From assembly GCA_024404435.1 (NCBI GenBank), contig JAKSPW010000019.1:1-13036 (forward strand): a stretch of 13,036 bases of DNA. The letters run 5' to 3'. The notes under the pieces were generated by a model, which saw only the letters and a list, made by a program, of their open reading frames with translations, made no database searches and was not told the origin of the DNA. A program made the translations under genes and the position numbers. Below are positions 154 to 11,548 of this stretch, piece by piece. The stretch's first letter is position 1. Each line of letters begins with the position of its first letter. The DNA is from Clostridia bacterium (GTDB lineage Bacteria > Bacillota > Clostridia > Oscillospirales > CAG-272).

Positions 154-1599
154 TCAGCCGTCAAGCTCCGCGCTGAACGGCACGTAGGTCACCGAGAGCT
201 TTTCAAGCGCCTGCTCGGCTTTCTCAAGCGTATCGCAGGTGATCCTTATGACCATGCCGTCGACGGCGACCTCGATCGTCGGATAGGTGAAAAGAATCCT
301 TTCACTGCGCCCGTCGACCGTCACGAGAGCCTTGACGCTTCTGCCCATCACCGTGTACTCCTTCTCATACACTTCGGCGCTGTCGAGCATGAACGGATCA
401 ACGTATACCGCTTCGTAGGAATAGGGACTCTGGTAGATATTGTGATTTCTTTCGTGCATATCCTTCCAGTCGCCGTACTCGTCTACGTTGACGCTTCTCT
501 GATGCAGCTCGTGGATGAGCCATGCGGTGCCGTTCTCATTGAGCCTCGATTCGAGAGCCTTGTCGTAGTACGTGATCTCGACGATATTCGCCCCGTCGAT
601 CCCGAACGAGAGCGACGGCCTGTTCAGATATCCGTACGGCTTGAACAGCAGGTAGTCGTTTTCGAAATCCACTCCGCCGTTGACGCACGGATAGGGGATA
701 CCCTCGGAAAGGAGCCTGCGGCAGAACTCGGATGCTATGCCGTTCTTCAGCTCGTCTGCCGAGAAGTAGTCAAATCCGAGCCTGTCCTCGAGTATCTGAT
801 CTTCAATTGTAAACCCTTCTCTAATGTACGTCGTGAAACGCTCCATTGACGTGAGAAGCTCATACGGAGAACTGAAAGTCTCCTTGACACCGAGCCATTC
901 TCCGCCGATGACGTCTTCCTGAGACCCGTAACCGCCGCCGCCGACACCGCTCACCTTGTTCTCTTTCAGATATCTGAGCATCTTCGAGAAAATCTCGGCA
1001 GCGTGAGCGCGCCGTGTCGGCTCGTCGGGCCTGAACGAGCCATCGGGATATCCGCCGATAAGTCCGGATGCGGAGAATCTTCCGACGGACTCTGCCGCCC
1101 ATCCCGACACCTTGTCTGCGTCGGTGAACGCGGGGGAGATCGCTTCACCGAGGTCCTTGCCCGCGTAAGCGAAATATCTGTCGAGCATCGTGCAGAAAGC
1201 TTCACGGGTGAGCATTCCGTCGGGAGCGAATTTTCCGTCGCCCACGCCGCCGACGATGCCCTTGTCCTTTGCCCATGCAACGGCGTCGCAGTACCAGCTT
1301 CCCTCGGCGACGTCATCGAACGGAGACGCTTCACACTTCGGTATTTCCTCTCCGCTCATCCTTGCGAGCACGGTCGCGAGCTCGCTTCTTTTCATTTCCG
1401 CATTCGGGCGGAAGAGGCCGAAGCTTCCGAACATCAGCCCCGCACGGTCTGCGGTGTAAACGGCATTTTCATACCATGCGCCGCTCTTGACGTCGAGAAA
1501 TCCGGCGGAGCCGCTGACCGATATCGCGGACGCAGGCACGAAAGTGAGTGTGCCGAGACAGAATATCAGTGATAAAACGAGTGATATTGTTTTTTTCAT
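154..1599 (-). CDS. secreted protein with three SLH repeats and an orphan C-terminal domain
   Basis: This 481-residue protein begins with a signal peptide (KK, then a hydrophobic stretch, likely cut after ASA at 23-25). Three SLH repeats follow at about 34-83, 93-146 and 157-212. Each has the FxDV...W...AV...G...G core, and the third carries GGYPDGSFRPDEPTRRA. SLH repeats normally anchor proteins to pyruvylated secondary wall polymers. A glycine-rich hinge at 217-225 leads to a C-terminal region (about 235-481) that I do not recognise; it is rich in Tyr, Glu and Asp and ends in a beta-rich stretch. I chose the ATG at 1599 because it begins the signal peptide and has AAAGGAG eight bases upstream. 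A longer frame exists but overlaps the serpin. The gene lies 13 bases after the serpin stop, so it is probably co-transcribed with it and the sigma gene. Confidence 0.88.
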   Translation of the reverse strand: MKKTISLVLSLIFCLGTLTFVPASAISVSGSAGFLDVKSGAWYENAVYTADRAGLMFGSFGLFRPNAEMKRSELATVLARMSGEEIPKCEASPFDDVAEGSWYCDAVAWAKDKGIVGGVGDGKFAPDGMLTREAFCTMLDRYFAYAGKDLGEAISPAFTDADKVSGWAAESVGRFSASGLIGGYPDGSFRPDEPTRRAHAAEIFSKMLRYLKENKVSGVGGGGYGSQEDVIGGEWLGVKETFSSPYELLTSMERFTTYIREGFTIEDQILEDRLGFDYFSADELKNGIASEFCRRLLSEGIPYPCVNGGVDFENDYLLFKPYGYLNRPSLSFGIDGANIVEITYYDKALESRLNENGTAWLIHELHQRSVNVDEYGDWKDMHERNHNIYQSPYSYEAVYVDPFMLDSAEVYEKEYTVMGRSVKALVTVDGRSERILFTYPTIEVAVDGMVIRITCDTLEKAEQALEKLSVTYVPFSAELDG

Positions 1600-1612
1600 T
1601 TTTTTGCTCCTT

Positions 1613-3082
1613 TCAGCCAACGTCGCAGACGATGCCGACGAACAGAGGCAGGTCTCCCGCACCGCGTATGACGAAGATGAACGGTCTGTCGAGCGTCATC
1701 CTGAAATATTCTAACGGAATGCATGACGTGGCCTCATAAATGATCGTGAAAGCGGCTGCCTCACAGCCGTCCTCGTCTACCGTGACGCGGGCTGCGTGAG
1801 AGACGCCCGACACGTACGGAGAATCCGCGCCGGGGGAAACGGGAGTAAAGTCGGCGACTCCGCGAACGAAGGCGTCTTTCACTCCGAGTTCTTCAAGCAT
1901 CGGCTTGAGGTCGAGGCTCGAGTCGACGTCGAACTTCGGAAGGGAAAGGGTGATCTCGTCGGCTTTGACGGCGAGGCTTTCGCCTCCGCGCACGATGAAG
2001 TCGAGCGCAGATTCGTCTCTCAGGAGATCATCGGGAGTCTTTCCCTCGTCGGGGAGTATGAACGTCATTTTGTATTCGTTGTTTCTGAAGTATTTATCTT
2101 CCGCGATGAAGCCGTCGCCGATGTACGCCGTGTCACCGCCGCCGTTCATGAAGTCACACCTCTCGTCGGTCTTGCCGTGAAAGACGCTTTTCTTCGTGGC
2201 GCCGCTCCAGAATTTGCCGTCCCAACCGGCTTTGAAGTGTATTGCGGATACGAGGGCAAGTGCGGTCTCGGAATCGAACTTTTCTTTTCCCGCATGCTCT
2301 TCGAGCAGACCGCCCGTCTGGTCGTTCAACCAGTCCTGAAGCATCTTGTCGTATTCGGGAGAGCCCATTTCGCCGACGAAGGTCGACGCGAAATAGTTTT
2401 CCGCGAGCGTTTTGACGAGCGACTCGTTGTAGTTCATGTCATGCCTGAGCCACAGGGAGTTGGCGAGCAGTGAGCGCGTGACGCCGTCGTCCGTGTACGC
2501 CGCCTTCCAGACTGCGTTTGCAGAGGAGCGCACGGAGTCCGTGTCCGCCTCCCCGAGAAGTGCGAGGAGCTGATCCTTCGTTTCGCCCGCGGCACACTCC
2601 GAGAGCATGCTGAGCGCGAGGTAGACGTTTGTCGGCGAGAAAACGACGTTGCCGTCCCGGCCCGTCATGAACTCACTGACGGTCTTTCTGAAAAATTCCG
2701 TCGTGCCGTCAGACAGAGTGCCGAGATTCTTTTCTTTTTCCGCCGTTGTTTCTCCCCACTTCTGCAGCGTGTTGAGGTAACCGTCATACGTCATCGTGTC
2801 GGGCACGGGAAATTTTTCCGTTTCGGGGTAATCGGCCGCAGCCGCAGCGAACGGAGAAAAGTGATGAACGGGTTCGGGCGGCACGTCACTCACGGAGCCG
2901 CTCCTGCCGCCGCCGACGAAGACGGCGGTCACGGTCACGGCGCAGACGAGCATCGCCGCGACGGCGGAATACACGATCTTTCTGTTCTTTTTCCTCTGCG
3001 GCTTGTAATTTTCCGCGTCGGCGAGGTATTTGTCACCGATGCCGCTTATCGCACCGTAGAGCTTTTCGCTGTTTTTACTCAC
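1613..3082 (-). CDS. membrane-anchored serpin with anti-sigma-like N-terminus
   Basis: The protein has 489 residues. Residues 1-34 are a short charged segment (EKLYGAISGIGDKYLADAEN, then basic RKKNRK). A single membrane span (about 36-57) and a linker follow, then a full-length serpin domain (about 120-489). Serpin marks include NVVFSPTNVYLALSML (145-160), the hinge DEDGCEAAA (436-444), DRPFIFVIR (465-473) and LFVGIV near the end. Aligning with alpha-1-antitrypsin puts the scissile bond near Ser453-Cys454 (ATS-CIPL). The Ala-rich hinge suggests an inhibitory serpin that traps a protease outside the membrane. The N-terminus, from memory, resembles short cytoplasmic segments of clostridial proteins encoded beside ECF sigma factors. 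I chose the GTG at 3082: it overlaps the sigma stop in GTGA, and the upstream residues of the longer frame are sigma-gene shadow. The anti-sigma role is inferred. Confidence 0.92.
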   Translation of the reverse strand: MSKNSEKLYGAISGIGDKYLADAENYKPQRKKNRKIVYSAVAAMLVCAVTVTAVFVGGGRSGSVSDVPPEPVHHFSPFAAAAADYPETEKFPVPDTMTYDGYLNTLQKWGETTAEKEKNLGTLSDGTTEFFRKTVSEFMTGRDGNVVFSPTNVYLALSMLSECAAGETKDQLLALLGEADTDSVRSSANAVWKAAYTDDGVTRSLLANSLWLRHDMNYNESLVKTLAENYFASTFVGEMGSPEYDKMLQDWLNDQTGGLLEEHAGKEKFDSETALALVSAIHFKAGWDGKFWSGATKKSVFHGKTDERCDFMNGGGDTAYIGDGFIAEDKYFRNNEYKMTFILPDEGKTPDDLLRDESALDFIVRGGESLAVKADEITLSLPKFDVDSSLDLKPMLEELGVKDAFVRGVADFTPVSPGADSPYVSGVSHAARVTVDEDGCEAAAFTIIYEATSCIPLEYFRMTLDRPFIFVIRGAGDLPLFVGIVCDVG

Positions 3083-3636
3083 AGTAATATACCGTTCCTT
3101 TCGAGATATTTTCCGAGATTTTTTCTCAGCCTGAAGAGCCGTCCCGCCATCTGGGACGCGTTCATCCCGAAGCGGGCGGCAAGCTCCTTCACGGAGTCGC
3201 CGTACCAGTAGCGGCGCACGAAGATGGCCGCGTCCTCGGTACGGAGCCCGTCGAGCCATTTTTCGATAGACTCTGAGGTGAAAGCCGCTTCTGCGAGATC
3301 CTCGACTCCGTCGCGGGACGGGATCGCGTCCTCGAGCTCGGAGAGCAGGAGCTCCTCCGCGCCGCCTCTTGAGGCGGACGTTTTCTGCCTGAATCTTCCG
3401 ACGGCGATGTTCCGTGCGATCCTTGCGGTATATCCCGCAAAGTGAACGGGGCGTTCCGGCGGTATTTTCTGCCAGAGCGCGTGGAGAGTGTCGCTTTCGA
3501 CCTCCTCCGCGTCCTCGCGGTCGCCGAGAACGTTCATCGCGACGCGCCTGCTCAGAGCACCGTACTTTGAGGCGGTCTCACTCAGCGCCGCCTCGTCGCG
3601 TGCGAAAAACAGATCGGTTATCTCACGGTCATCCAT
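3079..3636 (-). CDS. ECF-type RNA polymerase sigma factor
   Basis: At 185 residues this has the usual length and layout of an extracytoplasmic-function sigma factor. Region 2 spans about 24-84 (KYGALSRRVAMNVLGDREDAEEVESDTLHALW..., with FAGYTARIARNIAVGRFRQ for -10 binding and melting). Region 4 spans about 121-178, with a helix-turn-helix at SVKELAARFGMNASQMAGRLFRLR. It directs RNA polymerase to a specific promoter set. ATG 3636 has AAGGAGG ten bases upstream. Its TGA stop overlaps the GTG start of the membrane serpin by four bases, the usual arrangement of a sigma factor with a membrane-bound antagonist. The promoter is not obvious, and self-regulation is likely but unproven. The ECF subgroup cannot be named by eye. 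Confidence 0.93.
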   Translation of the reverse strand: MDDREITDLFFARDEAALSETASKYGALSRRVAMNVLGDREDAEEVESDTLHALWQKIPPERPVHFAGYTARIARNIAVGRFRQKTSASRGGAEELLLSELEDAIPSRDGVEDLAEAAFTSESIEKWLDGLRTEDAAIFVRRYWYGDSVKELAARFGMNASQMAGRLFRLRKNLGKYLERNGILL

Positions 3637-3744
3637 CGGTCGGCTTCCTCCTTGTATGAAAAATCAAAGGCCTTTACCTATACAGTCGCAAAAAAAACGG
3701 AAATATTCGCATGAAACGATATTTTTTTGTTTTTTTACAAATTA
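3637..3744 (-). promoter_or_regulatory. AT-rich upstream region of the sigma-serpin-SLH operon
   Basis: These bases lie directly upstream of the sigma gene and should hold its promoter. They contain the 10-bp palindrome AAAGGCCTTT (3666-3675), an eight-base A-run (3690-3697) and a T-rich tract (3719-3737). On the minus strand a TATAGG box (3677-3682) follows TTTTTTTTGCGACTG. This does not match a good sigma-A -35/-10 pair, which would fit an ECF-type self-regulated promoter. No consensus can be assigned from one copy. Confidence 0.35.
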
Positions 3745-8391: not shown

Positions 8392-8433
8392 AGCAATATC
8401 AAAATGCCAAGCGGCAATAAGAAAGGAAAAATT

Positions 8434-9909
8434 ATGAGCAGAAAGATAATAGCTCTGCTTCTTGTCCTCGTCATGATCGTCCCGATGATCGCCTCCTGCG
8501 GCGGTGAAGAGAAGGATAAAAACGAGGAAACGAAAAGCACCGGCACAGACGTTGCCGAAACGGTCGAAAACGAATTCGCCGAGATCGACGGATACGTCGA
8601 AGACCTCGTATCCCAGAGCGGTACCTACGGCGGAGAGACGTTCACGATGCTCCTGAATCAGGCTGACTGGCCGGAGGAAGAGGAGATCACCGGAAACCTT
8701 CTCGACGACGCGCTCTACAACCGTATCCGCGACATCGAAGAGTACTTCGAGGTGGACATGGTCCCGTACAAGACTGACGGCACCGGATACGAAACGTCCG
8801 GCGCACAGATGGCTGACCTCGTCTTCCAGGACACGATGGCGGGCAGCATGTCCTACGACCTCGTACACGCCAACCTCATGACCTGCGGTCAGGTCATGCT
8901 CAACACCGGCTCTATCAGATACGTCGAGGAGATGGATCCCCTCGATTTCTCGAACAAATGGTGGCTCAACGACCTCGAGGATCAGTTCTCGATCGGCGGG
9001 CATCTCTACTTCCTCACCGGCGAGATAGTTTCCAACAACTTTACGGACCCGGCGTGCATAATCTTCAACAAGAAGATCGCCGAGAACTACGGCCTGCCGA
9101 ATCTGTACGACATCGCAAACGCGGGCGATTGGACGTTTGATAAAATGGTGGAAGTTTCGAGCGTCATCACTCCCGGCTCCGGCACGTACAGCCTCATCAC
9201 GGGCGGCGCATCGGGCGGACTCTGCTTCTACATCGGCGCAGGCTATAAGATCGCCGAGACGGACGAGGAAGGCAATCCCACGATCGCGCCTACTCTGACG
9301 GGAGAACAGGTAGACTTCATCGACAAGCTCGCATCCGTGATCGGCGACAATACCGTCACGGTGACCGATATGAACGAGCTCTCTTATTCCGGAACCAATG
9401 CACAATTTGAGGCAATGGACGACGACGTTTCCCTCTTCCTTTCATCGGGAATCGGCGCGGCAGCATCCCTCAGAGCCTACGACATCGACTTCGGCATCCT
9501 GCCTATCCCGAAGGGCACCGCTTCGCAGGACAAGTACATCAGCCTTTCCTCCGCATGGACGGTCGCAGGTGTATTCTTCCCGAAGCTTCTCAAAAACGAG
9601 GAGATGACCTCCACCATTACCGAGGCCATGGCGGCTCTCAGCGACAAGTATCTGCGCCCCGCGTTCTATGAGAAGGCCCTCAAGGGCAGAAGCACTAACG
9701 ACGTCGAATCGAGACGCATGCTCGACCTCATCTACGCCGCAAAGAGGATCGACCTCGCCGACACTTATCAGTGGGGCGAAGTAGTCAAGGTCATCAACGA
9801 AGCATGCATGGGAGAGAAGGACGAAGTTGTGTCGACCTACAACGGCTCGGCCAAGTTCGCGAACACGCAGATCAAACGCCTCCTCAAGCAGATTGAAAAG
9901 CAGAACTGA
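8434..9909 (+). CDS. ABC-transporter sugar-binding lipoprotein, paralog 1
   Basis: The protein has 491 residues. It opens with a lipoprotein signal (MSRKIIALLLVLVMIVPMIA) and lipobox IASC, with Cys22 as the lipidated residue. An acidic, Ser/Thr-rich linker to about 45 is followed by a fold like extracellular solute-binding proteins of carbohydrate ABC importers (family 1-like). Supporting segments are NKKIAENYGLPNLYDIANAG and the late FGILPIPKG. It should sit on the outer face of the membrane and deliver an oligosaccharide to a permease, but none is encoded here. ATG 8434 starts the signal peptide and has AAGAAAGGA upstream; a longer in-frame start at 8404 would add residues ahead of it. It is closely related to the next gene over its full length, including the C-terminal ALKGRST region. 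The ligand is unknown. Confidence 0.9.
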   Translation: MSRKIIALLLVLVMIVPMIASCGGEEKDKNEETKSTGTDVAETVENEFAEIDGYVEDLVSQSGTYGGETFTMLLNQADWPEEEEITGNLLDDALYNRIRDIEEYFEVDMVPYKTDGTGYETSGAQMADLVFQDTMAGSMSYDLVHANLMTCGQVMLNTGSIRYVEEMDPLDFSNKWWLNDLEDQFSIGGHLYFLTGEIVSNNFTDPACIIFNKKIAENYGLPNLYDIANAGDWTFDKMVEVSSVITPGSGTYSLITGGASGGLCFYIGAGYKIAETDEEGNPTIAPTLTGEQVDFIDKLASVIGDNTVTVTDMNELSYSGTNAQFEAMDDDVSLFLSSGIGAAASLRAYDIDFGILPIPKGTASQDKYISLSSAWTVAGVFFPKLLKNEEMTSTITEAMAALSDKYLRPAFYEKALKGRSTNDVESRRMLDLIYAAKRIDLADTYQWGEVVKVINEACMGEKDEVVSTYNGSAKFANTQIKRLLKQIEKQN

Positions 9910-10052: not shown

Positions 10053-11324
10053 ATGAGCAAAAAAATCATGGCGCTGCTTCTCGTCCTCGTCATGGTCATC
10101 CCGATGATCGTTTCCTGCGGAAGCGACGACAAAGGGACGGACGAAACGAATGCGGGAACGCAGAGCGCAACGAAACCCGTCGAGACCAACGAATTCACCG
10201 AAATGGAAAATTACGTTGCAGAGCTTTCGGCGAACAACAAGTTCGGCGGCGCGACGTTCAACATCATCGGCTCCGGCGGAAGCATCTACCCCGAGGTCGA
10301 GGAAGTAACCGGCGTACTCGAGGACGACGCGCTTTACAACCGTGTCCGCTCGCTCGAGGAAAACTTTGAGATCGACATCACGTTCCGCGAATCTCTCGGA
10401 ACGGACGGCTACGACAATACGGGTGCTGAGACTGCCGACATGGTACGTCAGGACGTAATGGCGAACAGCGAAGGCTCGTACGACCTCGCTGAGGGCCACC
10501 TCACGACCTGCGGTCAGGTAATGCTCGGCGGCAGACTCATTCTCCCCGTTGACGATCTCGACTACGTCGATCTCTCGAGAGAATGGTGGCTCAACGACCT
10601 CGAAGAGGTCTACGGCATCGGCGGCAGAACTTACTTCCTTACGGGTAAGATCAACCCCGATCATTACACGAACGCTTCGTGCATGCTCTTCAACAAGGAA
10701 GTAGCGACGAACTACGGCATCGACAATCTGTACGAGCTTGTTGACGCGGACGAGTGGACCTTCGACAAGATGGTCGAGACCGCTTCCGTCATCACTGCCG
10801 GCGGTGAAGTCAGACGCTACCTCATCGGTGCGACGACTTCTCTGTACTTCGGCGCGGGCTTCAAGCTCAGCGAGCGCGACGAGAACGGTGACCCGTATCT
10901 TCCGTCGGCACTTTCGTCCGACGCCGTCGACTACATCGACAAGATGGCGGCTGTCTTCAGCGACGACTCGACCGTTTTCAACGTAAAGAACAACACGGCG
11001 ACACCGTCCAAGGAAGGCGAGTTCTACGACAGACAGGAGTTCGAGGACGGACATTTCCTCTATTGGTTTGACAACGTCGGCCGCGCGATCGACCTCCGTC
11101 AGAACGACTATGAGGCCGAGTTCGGCATCCTCCCGATCCCGAAGAAGGACACGGCACAGAAGGATTATATCAGCTATACCGAAGGCAGAGCGGTTTACAT
11201 CCCGACGAACGTCAAGAACAAGGCCATGACGGACGTAGTCACCGAGGCTATGGCAGCCCTCTCGATCGAGTACCTCGAGCCCGCTTACTACGAAAAGGCT
11301 CTGAAGGGCAAAGTCGAGAAATGA
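10053..11324 (+). CDS. ABC-transporter sugar-binding lipoprotein, paralog 2, main part of a split gene
   Basis: This frame encodes 423 residues. The signal peptide and lipobox (MSKKIMALLL..., IVSC, Cys22) match paralog 1 almost residue for residue. The mature part shares blocks such as EWWLNDLEEVYGIGGRTYFL, NKEVATNYGIDNLYEL, EWTFDKMVE and EFGILPIPKK. It therefore belongs to the same sugar-binding family and was probably produced by tandem duplication. The frame ends early as ALKG-KVEK-TGA, where paralog 1 reads ALKGRSTNDVESRR. The missing C-terminus is encoded in another frame from 11321. Removing 20 bases (11302-11321) would join the two parts exactly. ATG 10053 has AAAGAAAGGA seven bases upstream. 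A version lacking about 75 C-terminal residues would probably not fold normally. Confidence 0.9.
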   Translation: MSKKIMALLLVLVMVIPMIVSCGSDDKGTDETNAGTQSATKPVETNEFTEMENYVAELSANNKFGGATFNIIGSGGSIYPEVEEVTGVLEDDALYNRVRSLEENFEIDITFRESLGTDGYDNTGAETADMVRQDVMANSEGSYDLAEGHLTTCGQVMLGGRLILPVDDLDYVDLSREWWLNDLEEVYGIGGRTYFLTGKINPDHYTNASCMLFNKEVATNYGIDNLYELVDADEWTFDKMVETASVITAGGEVRRYLIGATTSLYFGAGFKLSERDENGDPYLPSALSSDAVDYIDKMAAVFSDDSTVFNVKNNTATPSKEGEFYDRQEFEDGHFLYWFDNVGRAIDLRQNDYEAEFGILPIPKKDTAQKDYISYTEGRAVYIPTNVKNKAMTDVVTEAMAALSIEYLEPAYYEKALKGKVEK

Positions 11325-11330
11325 AGGGCA
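11302..11330 (+). repeat. 9-bp direct repeat bordering a 20-bp frameshifting insertion
   Basis: TGAAGGGCA occurs at 11302-11310 and 11322-11330, separated by AAGTCGAGAAA. Deleting one copy plus the 11 bases between restores an open frame (A L K G R S T Y D I D S R R) matching paralog 1. The 9-bp duplication plus residue resembles the footprint of an excised insertion element with a 9-bp target duplication. Replication slippage or an assembly error are alternatives. Confidence 0.7.
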
Positions 11331-11548
11331 GAAGCACGTACGACATCGACTCCAGACGCGTCCTTGACACGCTTTACAACTCCAAGATCGTTGACCTTGC
11401 CTGCACTTACGGCTGGGGCGATCTCGATAAGACCATCGGTCAGGCCTGCGTCGGCGACATCGACGGATACGTTTCCGCATACAACGCTTCCGTGAAGCTC
11501 GGCAACAGAAACATCCAGACGCTTCTCAAGACTCTTGCAAAGAACTGA
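11321..11548 (+). CDS. C-terminal fragment of binding-protein paralog 2
   Basis: The 75-residue frame KGRSTYDIDSRRVLDTLYNS... to LLKTLAKN aligns with the last part of paralog 1 (KGRSTNDVESRRMLDLIYAA... to LLKQIEKQN). It is the displaced C-terminus of the gene before it, not an independent protein. Its possible ATG at 11321 overlaps the upstream TGA as ATGA, so translational reinitiation could make it as a separate chain. It has no signal peptide, and only GAG in GTCGAGAA resembles a ribosome site. If made, it would stay in the cytoplasm and could not join the exported part. Confidence 0.75.
   Translation: MKGRSTYDIDSRRVLDTLYNSKIVDLACTYGWGDLDKTIGQACVGDIDGYVSAYNASVKLGNRNIQTLLKTLAKN

What the first reader, a model, noticed from the sequence alone, without database searches (positions are those of the whole stretch)
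154..3636. Sigma factor, membrane serpin and SLH protein in one operon
An ECF sigma factor is coupled by a GTGA overlap to a gene in the position of an anti-sigma factor. That gene encodes a short cytoplasmic segment, one membrane span and a full serpin outside, and an SLH surface protein follows 13 bases later. Serpins change shape irreversibly when a protease cuts their loop. A serpin joined to an anti-sigma-like tail could therefore report extracellular protease attack across the membrane and release the sigma factor. The architecture is visible in the sequence; the signalling role is a hypothesis. This is my best candidate for an undescribed system here.
Basis: partly seen in the sequence, partly recalled or inferred. 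Interest (0 to 1): 0.72.

Follow-up and report, generated by a model that had tools for sequence, protein, structure and literature searches.

The report
Serpin-headed anti-sigma factor senses proteases
Overlapping a sigma-factor gene, this bacterium encodes a membrane protein with a serpin (a one-shot protease trap) predicted to lie outside the cell and a short inner tail predicted to hold the sigma factor off, so that attack by an outside protease would likely switch genes on; the same two-gene design recurs in many Clostridia genomes, mostly from animal guts.

Summary
An ECF sigma gene (3636-3079, minus strand) overlaps by GTGA a 489-aa protein: 36-residue basic tail, one membrane span, complete serpin. 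An SLH gene follows after 13 bases.

The sigma-serpin pair is conserved; the SLH gene is not. In 80 named loci, 57 of 86 serpin genes have an ECF gene directly upstream (46 by the same 4-base overlap). All 57 carry a tail-type N-terminus; none of the 28 without sigma has a full tail (one has a truncated one).

The tail is a portable module: other ectodomains use it directly behind ECF genes (25 of 26 new loci), tail distances follow sigma more than serpin distances, and serpins also occur on a distinct tail paired with another ECF group. The same tail carries an alpha-2-macroglobulin-like protein, a second, unrelated protease-trap fold; of 16 such genes examined, 5 have tail plus sigma and 10 look like lipoproteins.

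Best reading: an anti-sigma receptor whose sensor is a suicide protease trap. The anti-sigma role is very likely; protease-triggered release is inferred and untested. My searches of open papers found no description. New variant of a known kind.

The parts
3079..3636 (-). ECF sigma factor, 185 aa
   Evidence: TIGR02937 6.4e-17, Sigma70_r2 1.2e-9; nearest solved relative by sequence CnrH (E 5.6e-4)
3079..3082 (-). GTGA overlap of sigma stop and serpin start
   Evidence: sequence; a 4-base overlap occurs in 46 of 57 sigma-serpin pairs
1613..3082 (-). tail + membrane span + serpin protein, 489 aa
   Evidence: AlphaFold2 mean pLDDT 85.6, pTM 0.81
2975..3082 (-). cytoplasmic tail, residues 1-36, predicted anti-sigma segment (two short helices predicted with low confidence, then a basic stretch)
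2915..2971 (-). transmembrane helix, residues 38-56
   Evidence: hydrophobic stretch in the sequence; helix in the model
1622..2665 (-). serpin domain, residues 140-487
1715..1774 (-). hinge and bait loop, residues 437-456 (EDGCEAAAFTIIYEATSCIP; P17 to P3' if counted as in alpha-1-antitrypsin, a recalled numbering)
   Evidence: hinge conserved; loop 3 of 19 identical in the closest homologue, serpin body 276 of 367
3677..3692 (-). promoter-like motif TTTGCGACTGTATAGG upstream of sigma, resembling stretches before sigma genes of related loci; predicted autoregulation
154..1599 (-). SLH surface protein, 481 aa, directly behind the serpin here but not a conserved component

Best explanation
The sigma gene and the serpin gene form a conserved two-gene unit in which the serpin protein's tail very likely acts as a membrane anti-sigma factor and its outer serpin would act as a one-shot sensor of extracellular proteases. 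Proposed mechanism, in order: (1) at rest, the 36-residue tail binds the ECF sigma factor at the membrane (inferred). (2) An extracellular protease, perhaps one that cuts after small residues, attacks the bait loop (inferred from the hinge and loop). (3) The loop inserts into sheet A, trapping the protease and irreversibly changing the fold (known for inhibitory serpins; not tested here). (4) The trapped protease or strained domain next to the membrane exposes the juxtamembrane stalk to a site-1 cut, as lysozyme binding does for RsiV (analogy). (5) An RseP/RasP-type protease cuts the span and sigma is freed (inferred; a fragment of such a gene is in the draft genome). (6) Sigma transcribes its own operon (a promoter-like motif is present) and unknown targets. 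Each receptor would be used once, making it a dosimeter of protease attack.
For: Pair conserved: 57 of 86 serpin genes in 80 named loci have an ECF gene directly upstream, 46 with the 4-base overlap; all 57 have a tail-type N-terminus; of 28 without sigma none has a full tail, one a truncated one. Tail belongs to sigma: of 30 tail-profile loci fetched, 4 are profile members; of the other 26, 25 lie directly behind an ECF gene and 25 are not serpins. In the window's own draft genome 3 full-length tail hits all sit behind ECF genes. Distances of 48 pairs: sigma-tail r 0.735, partial given serpin 0.645; tail-serpin given sigma 0.098. Serpins also sit on a second tail type with a different ECF group. 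Protease sensing: hinge E-x-G-C/V-x-A-A-A-F/Y-T kept in nearly all of 55 aligned tail serpins and shared with sigma-less ones; bait loop far more divergent than the body in the closest homologue; serpin fold confident, top matches loop-inserted forms; alpha-2-macroglobulin-like ectodomain on the same tail behind an ECF gene in the window's genus and in further genomes. RseP-type fragment present.
Against: No binding, cleavage or transcription data. The sigma-tail structure prediction is inconclusive: one of five models is confident (mean pLDDT 82.4, others 72.3-75.6), it used an artificial read-through chain, no coordinates were available for contacts, and the domain arrangement superposed on no solved sigma/anti-sigma complex closely. 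The tail matches no named anti-sigma family. Most other ectodomains on the tail have no sign of being protease inhibitors, so the tail itself says nothing about proteases. Sigma distances also correlate with serpin distances after allowing for the tail (partial 0.365, 0 of 2000 permutations). P14 is mostly C or V instead of the usual T/S (recalled) and P9 is mostly aromatic. Native serpins score within 2 Z units of loop-inserted ones. No regulon was found: in the own genome the motif occurs exactly only before this operon, and hits with 2 mismatches do not exceed the reversed-pattern control; it is not enriched before sigma-less serpins (1 of 28).
Confidence: 0.62

Rival explanations
1. The tail is an anti-sigma domain, but the serpin is an effector: a membrane-tethered inhibitor protecting the envelope, while the signal is something else (for example span or stalk stress).
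For: The same tail carries many unrelated ectodomains; the operon may be autoregulated, which would raise serpin dose; similar serpins exist as lipoproteins.
Against: Secreted serpins already do this without a sigma gene; the link is to an anti-sigma tail in particular, and a second protease-trap fold shows the same two forms.
Confidence: 0.2
2. The protease cuts the stalk between membrane and serpin directly (site-1 cut by the attacker); the serpin is a decoy or brake, and loop insertion is not the trigger.
For: Low-confidence stalk around residues 58-77; several relatives have long linkers.
Against: The hinge needed for loop insertion is strongly kept and the bait loop varies while the body is conserved, as expected if the loop is the point of contact.
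Confidence: 0.13
3. Chance neighbours: the serpin has no regulatory role and the overlap is incidental.
For: Small operons with overlapping genes are common in bacteria (general knowledge).
Against: 57 of 86 serpin genes, with a full tail only where sigma is present, across many genera.
Confidence: 0.03

Closest known systems
RsiV / sigma-V (DUF4179, ECF30; lysozyme receptor)
   Same: ECF sigma plus single-span anti-sigma protein whose outer domain binds the attacking enzyme itself; site-1 cut by signal peptidase, then RasP (passages of PMC6066255).
   Different: Outer domain there is not a serpin; DUF4179 was not matched by the window protein nor by any of 28 tail proteins scanned, two second-type serpins included. 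A serpin would bind by covalent, irreversible trapping.
CnrY-type (class II) short anti-sigma factors
   Same: Very short anti-sigma segment; the paper says CnrY's two helices wrap around CnrH (passage of PMC7406223); CnrH is the nearest solved sigma by sequence.
   Different: No detectable sequence match of the tail to a solved anti-sigma; no known outer serpin.
RsgI / SigI of cellulolytic Clostridia
   Same: Membrane anti-sigma with interchangeable outer sensor modules such as CBM3 (passages of PMC3413522 and PMC12484212).
   Different: Senses polysaccharides with a sigma-I-type factor; no RsgI N-terminal domain among the Pfam hits of the window protein at E up to 0.1.
Secreted bacterial serpins (siropins of Eubacterium siraeum, cellulosomal serpins of C. 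thermocellum)
   Same: Serpin fold; siropins inhibit neutrophil elastase and proteinase 3, C. thermocellum serpins inhibit subtilisin-like proteases (passages of PMC6718151 and PMC12484212).
   Different: No anti-sigma tail in the passages seen. One C. thermocellum serpin is called a membrane protein there; its genomic neighbour was not checked.

Membership tests
ECF sigma / anti-sigma operon | sigma region 2 and 4 protein of ECF type | tested here: met
   (TIGR02937 and Sigma70_r2 over cut-off; Sigma70_r4_2 24.7 bits, just under its 25.7)
ECF sigma / anti-sigma operon | adjacent membrane protein with cytoplasmic N-terminal segment, conserved in relatives | tested here: met
   orientation inferred from charge
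ECF sigma / anti-sigma operon | physical binding of the N-terminal segment to sigma | tested here: inconclusive
   one of five models confident, no contacts measurable; distances covary
RsiV / DUF4179 family | match to the Pfam model | tested here: not met
   window protein, E up to 0.1; 28 tail proteins, E up to 0.01
RsiV-like signalling | site-1 cut by signal peptidase then site-2 protease | not testable with these tools
   only an RseP-type fragment was seen, at a contig end and below the curated cut-off
Zinc-binding (class I) anti-sigma domain | cysteine/histidine zinc motif (recalled) or Pfam match | tested here: not met
   no C or H in the 36-residue tail (sequence); no such Pfam hit
Serpin | full serpin domain and fold | tested here: met
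Inhibitory serpin | hinge with P15 G and small residues at P12-P10 (criterion recalled) | tested here: met
   window E-D-G-C-E-A-A-A-F-T; P14 C and P9 F are not the usual residues
Inhibitory serpin | covalent protease complex | not testable with these tools
   needs purified protein

The most novel reading that the evidence does not exclude
Gut Clostridia possess a class of anti-sigma receptors whose sensors are suicide protease traps: serpins on at least two distinct anti-sigma tails, and alpha-2-macroglobulin-like traps on one of them. Each trapped protease spends one receptor and frees one sigma factor, so the cell counts protease attack irreversibly.
Probability: 0.45. Interest if true: 0.85.

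Novelty: new variant of a known kind. Interest (0 to 1): 0.72.

Why it matters
Serpins are known mainly as inhibitors; a serpin whose irreversible fold change is wired to a transcription switch would be a new use of the fold and a direct way for gut bacteria to sense host or rival proteases. PMC6718151 (passage) says that the physiological functions of prokaryotic serpins remain elusive; a tail-serpin/sigma pair makes that question testable in one operon, and the same logic may extend to alpha-2-macroglobulin-like proteins. The tail module also offers a handle on a large set of uncharacterised outer sensor domains.

Tried and rejected
SLH as a conserved third part: rejected.

Regulon by promoter motif: exact match only before this operon; of two hits with 2 mismatches, one lies before another ECF gene of the genome (C88); the reversed-pattern control gave 3+3 hits, so no regulon is claimed. 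Motif before sigma-less serpins: 1 of 28, at background.

Tail against solved structures: best E 0.13, not an anti-sigma.

Sigma-tail model: tail-only rows were misaligned by MAFFT, so they were left out; the model rests on three read-through rows plus sigma rows. Inconclusive. The second look at solved chains aligned mainly sigma regions 2 and 4.

Natural one-frame fusions of sigma with tail or with serpin: none in the 142 loci held.

The tally (53 of 59 genomes with a tail hit at E up to 0.1) is inflated by matches to the membrane span alone; I use only the loci checked one by one.

Literature: search listings 17, 18, 26, 86, 97, 102, 103. Full-text search for serpin with anti-sigma found 13 papers, 12 listed; I saw passages of four of these (PMC3413522, PMC12484212, PMC3990059, PMC10059941), where the two words concern different proteins; the other eight I judged by title. 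Macroglobulin with anti-sigma: 3 papers, passages of one seen, unrelated. The library is open-licence PMC only; an ECF classification paper was not held.
Full report

Conservation. In 146 genomes of the window's taxonomic family, 99 have a serpin match. I read the 30 loci fetched: besides the window, 18 have an ECF gene directly upstream of a tail-serpin of the window's type, and 3 more (L020, L021, L023) of a second type whose sigma I recognised by eye (the attempt to scan one failed). In L015, of the window's genus and counted among the 18, the sigma frame is interrupted by a stop. A separate scan of named genomes returned 80 loci, mostly metagenome assemblies from gut samples labelled Oscillospiraceae, Lachnospiraceae or Clostridia, plus a few isolates such as Flavonifractor sp. 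AGMB03687 and Pseudoflavonifractor phocaeensis An507. The scan kept the best 80 of 525 relatives, so it is biased to serpins like this one. In these 80 loci there are 86 serpin genes: 57 with an ECF gene directly upstream, 28 without, 1 without a start in the contig. The overlap is exactly 4 bases in 46 of 57. All 57 have a tail-type N-terminus (four of the second type). Starts were chosen by a simple rule. Among the 28, checked over their whole frames, one (the second serpin of L045, a locus with another sigma/tail-serpin pair) has a basic tail and span but lacks the first part of the profile (positions 14-54 matched), and L042 and L080 matched mainly the span; a simple lipobox pattern fits 16. 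Two of the 28 (L039, L099) have under 240 bases upstream, so a missing sigma is untested there.

The tail is a module that belongs to the sigma factor. A profile of 17 tails (A2) was searched in 59 relatives. Of the 30 loci fetched, among the best hits, 4 (L113-L116) are profile members; of the 26 others, 25 have an ECF gene directly upstream, 20 with the 4-base overlap, and 25 of 26 are not serpins; L131 has no sigma detected. Ectodomains named by Pfam include VWA, LRR_5, DUF4367 and Big_5/MG2; most have none (two of its 28 rows are second-type serpins). In the window's own genome 5 matches were counted; of the 4 listed, 3 span the profile (C101, C88, C61) and all sit behind ECF genes, the fourth covers the span only. 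Pairwise distances of 48 sigma/tail/serpin sets (of 57; dropped: four second-type tails, L068, L079 and three whose serpin start was not recognised) gave sigma-tail r 0.735, sigma-serpin 0.563, tail-serpin 0.468; partial sigma-tail given serpin 0.645, sigma-serpin given tail 0.365, tail-serpin given sigma 0.098; 0 of 2000 permutations reached the observed sigma-tail r, its partial, or the sigma-serpin partial. Shared descent contributes to all of these; the contrast suggests that tail and sigma travel together while the serpin is exchanged more freely.

Independent recruitment. A second tail type (M-N/K-R-Y-K/Q-K/E-A-N...) carries serpins behind a different ECF group: the sigma profile of the first group scores these only at E 2e-9 to 3e-8, while the general ECF model recognises L083 and L085 clearly (TIGR02937 1.7e-22 and 2.3e-20). 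On a serpin-domain tree of 93 rows the labels are intermixed: 16 changes in all; well-supported branches force at least 6 changes for the first tail and 2 for the second (quick tree, 42 of 90 branches weak). Seven rows were left out because my domain pattern missed them, and the own genome's second serpin was missed too.

Protease trap. In the aligned tail serpins (55 including the window; 79 of the 87 available sequences were aligned) the hinge is nearly invariant: P15 G 54, P12 A 52, P11 A 49, P10 A 52, P8 T 54; P14 is C 29 or V 22, P9 F 25 or Y 25. The 24 sigma-less serpins aligned show the same. P1 by counting from P17 is small in many (S-C in the window); this numbering is recalled from human serpins. 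Against its closest homologue (P0007, 74 percent identity overall) the window's bait loop has 3 of 19 identities, against 276 of 367 in the body.

A second trap fold. L118, in the window's genus (G151), carries the tail and overlaps an ECF gene by ATGA; the full protein, 1641 aa, has Pfam A2M_BRD 1.7e-8 and A2M 6.6e-5, both over cut-off. It had no match among solved structures by sequence. Relatives occur in 18 of 196 family genomes; I fetched the N-terminal surroundings of 15 places in 14 of those 18 genomes. With the first, 16 genes: 5 have tail and ECF gene (L187, L227, L228, L239, L241), 10 have lipoprotein-type starts (by eye) and no ECF gene detected in the stretch, 1 (L240) has a membrane start without ECF gene. 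The gene of L228 holds a stop inside its match. A second full protein (L197, same gene as L227) also passes the A2M and A2M_BRD cut-offs; the other three were not scanned in full or showed only Big_5 in the part scanned. So two unrelated protease-trapping folds each occur as a free inhibitor and as the outer domain of the same tail. This is my main reason for preferring protease sensing; it is inference. Whether these macroglobulin-like proteins trap proteases is not known.

Sigma-tail contact. I predicted one chain made of the L060 sigma factor, the spacer read through its stops, and the tail. Best model: mean pLDDT 82.4, pTM 0.78, tail blocks 84 and 88; the other four models average 72.3-75.6. 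The higher tail confidence than in the serpin model would fit docking, but it is a different protein, only three rows contain a tail, and there were no coordinates or error matrix. Structure comparison recovers ECF sigma folds; full-length superposition on solved sigma/anti-sigma complexes is poor (7 angstrom rmsd or more). I count this as inconclusive.

Promoter. Many sigma genes in these loci are preceded by a motif like TTTGCGACTnTATAGGTGAA. A loose pattern occurs before the sigma gene in 19 of 55 loci (one search counted 19 of 57 rows, two loci twice), against 6 percent in shuffles and 4 percent in random windows, and before 1 of 28 sigma-less serpins. In the own genome the exact motif is only before this operon. 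Autoregulation is likely; targets are unknown.

Known systems. RsiV is the nearest working analogue: lysozyme binding allows signal peptidase to cut, then RasP (passages, PMC6066255). The window protein has no DUF4179 match, so I do not file it there. Short two-helix anti-sigma factors such as CnrY (passage, PMC7406223) show that a tail of this size can suffice, and RsgI proteins (passages) show anti-sigma factors with exchangeable outer sensors. Statements on siropins and C. thermocellum serpins are from passages.

Verdict. Observation confirmed; anti-sigma role very likely (about 0.9 in my judgement); protease-trap sensing the best single mechanism (0.62 overall); SLH gene incidental to the conserved unit.

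Noticed in passing
L001 (G000:C245, 27-2201); L171 (G086:C84): The window's genome has a second serpin with SLH repeats in the same frame (724 aa) and no sigma gene seen; a congener has a similar SLH-serpin frame.
   Followed up: partly
L075:4938-6773: A serpin with what look like dockerin repeats near its N-terminus (recognised by eye), as in cellulosomal serpins.
   Followed up: no
L008, L017, L045, L082, L106: Tandem arrangements: serpin, sigma, tail-serpin; two sigma/tail-serpin pairs in a row; or (L045) a pair followed by a serpin with a truncated tail.
   Followed up: partly
L015 (G023:C5): In a congener the sigma frame in front of a tail-serpin is interrupted by a stop codon (decay or assembly error); only described.
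   Followed up: no
window 10053-11548 (+): The second of two similar lipoprotein-like genes seems split: frame 10053-11324 is followed in another frame by 11321-11548, which resembles the C-terminus of the intact neighbour 8404-9909.
   Followed up: no
P0008 and P0009 against P0007 and P0001: Close serpin relatives carry a quite different N-terminal tail (5 of 28 identities to the window) while the serpin body stays at 57-59 percent: probably a tail swap.
   Followed up: partly
P0080 (685 aa): A database protein joining an ABC-transporter ATPase to a serpin; possibly an assembly chimera.
   Followed up: no
L117-L142: Many uncharacterised outer domains (VWA, LRR_5 and unnamed ones) share the same tail and ECF gene order: a large set of orphan sensors.
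   Followed up: partly
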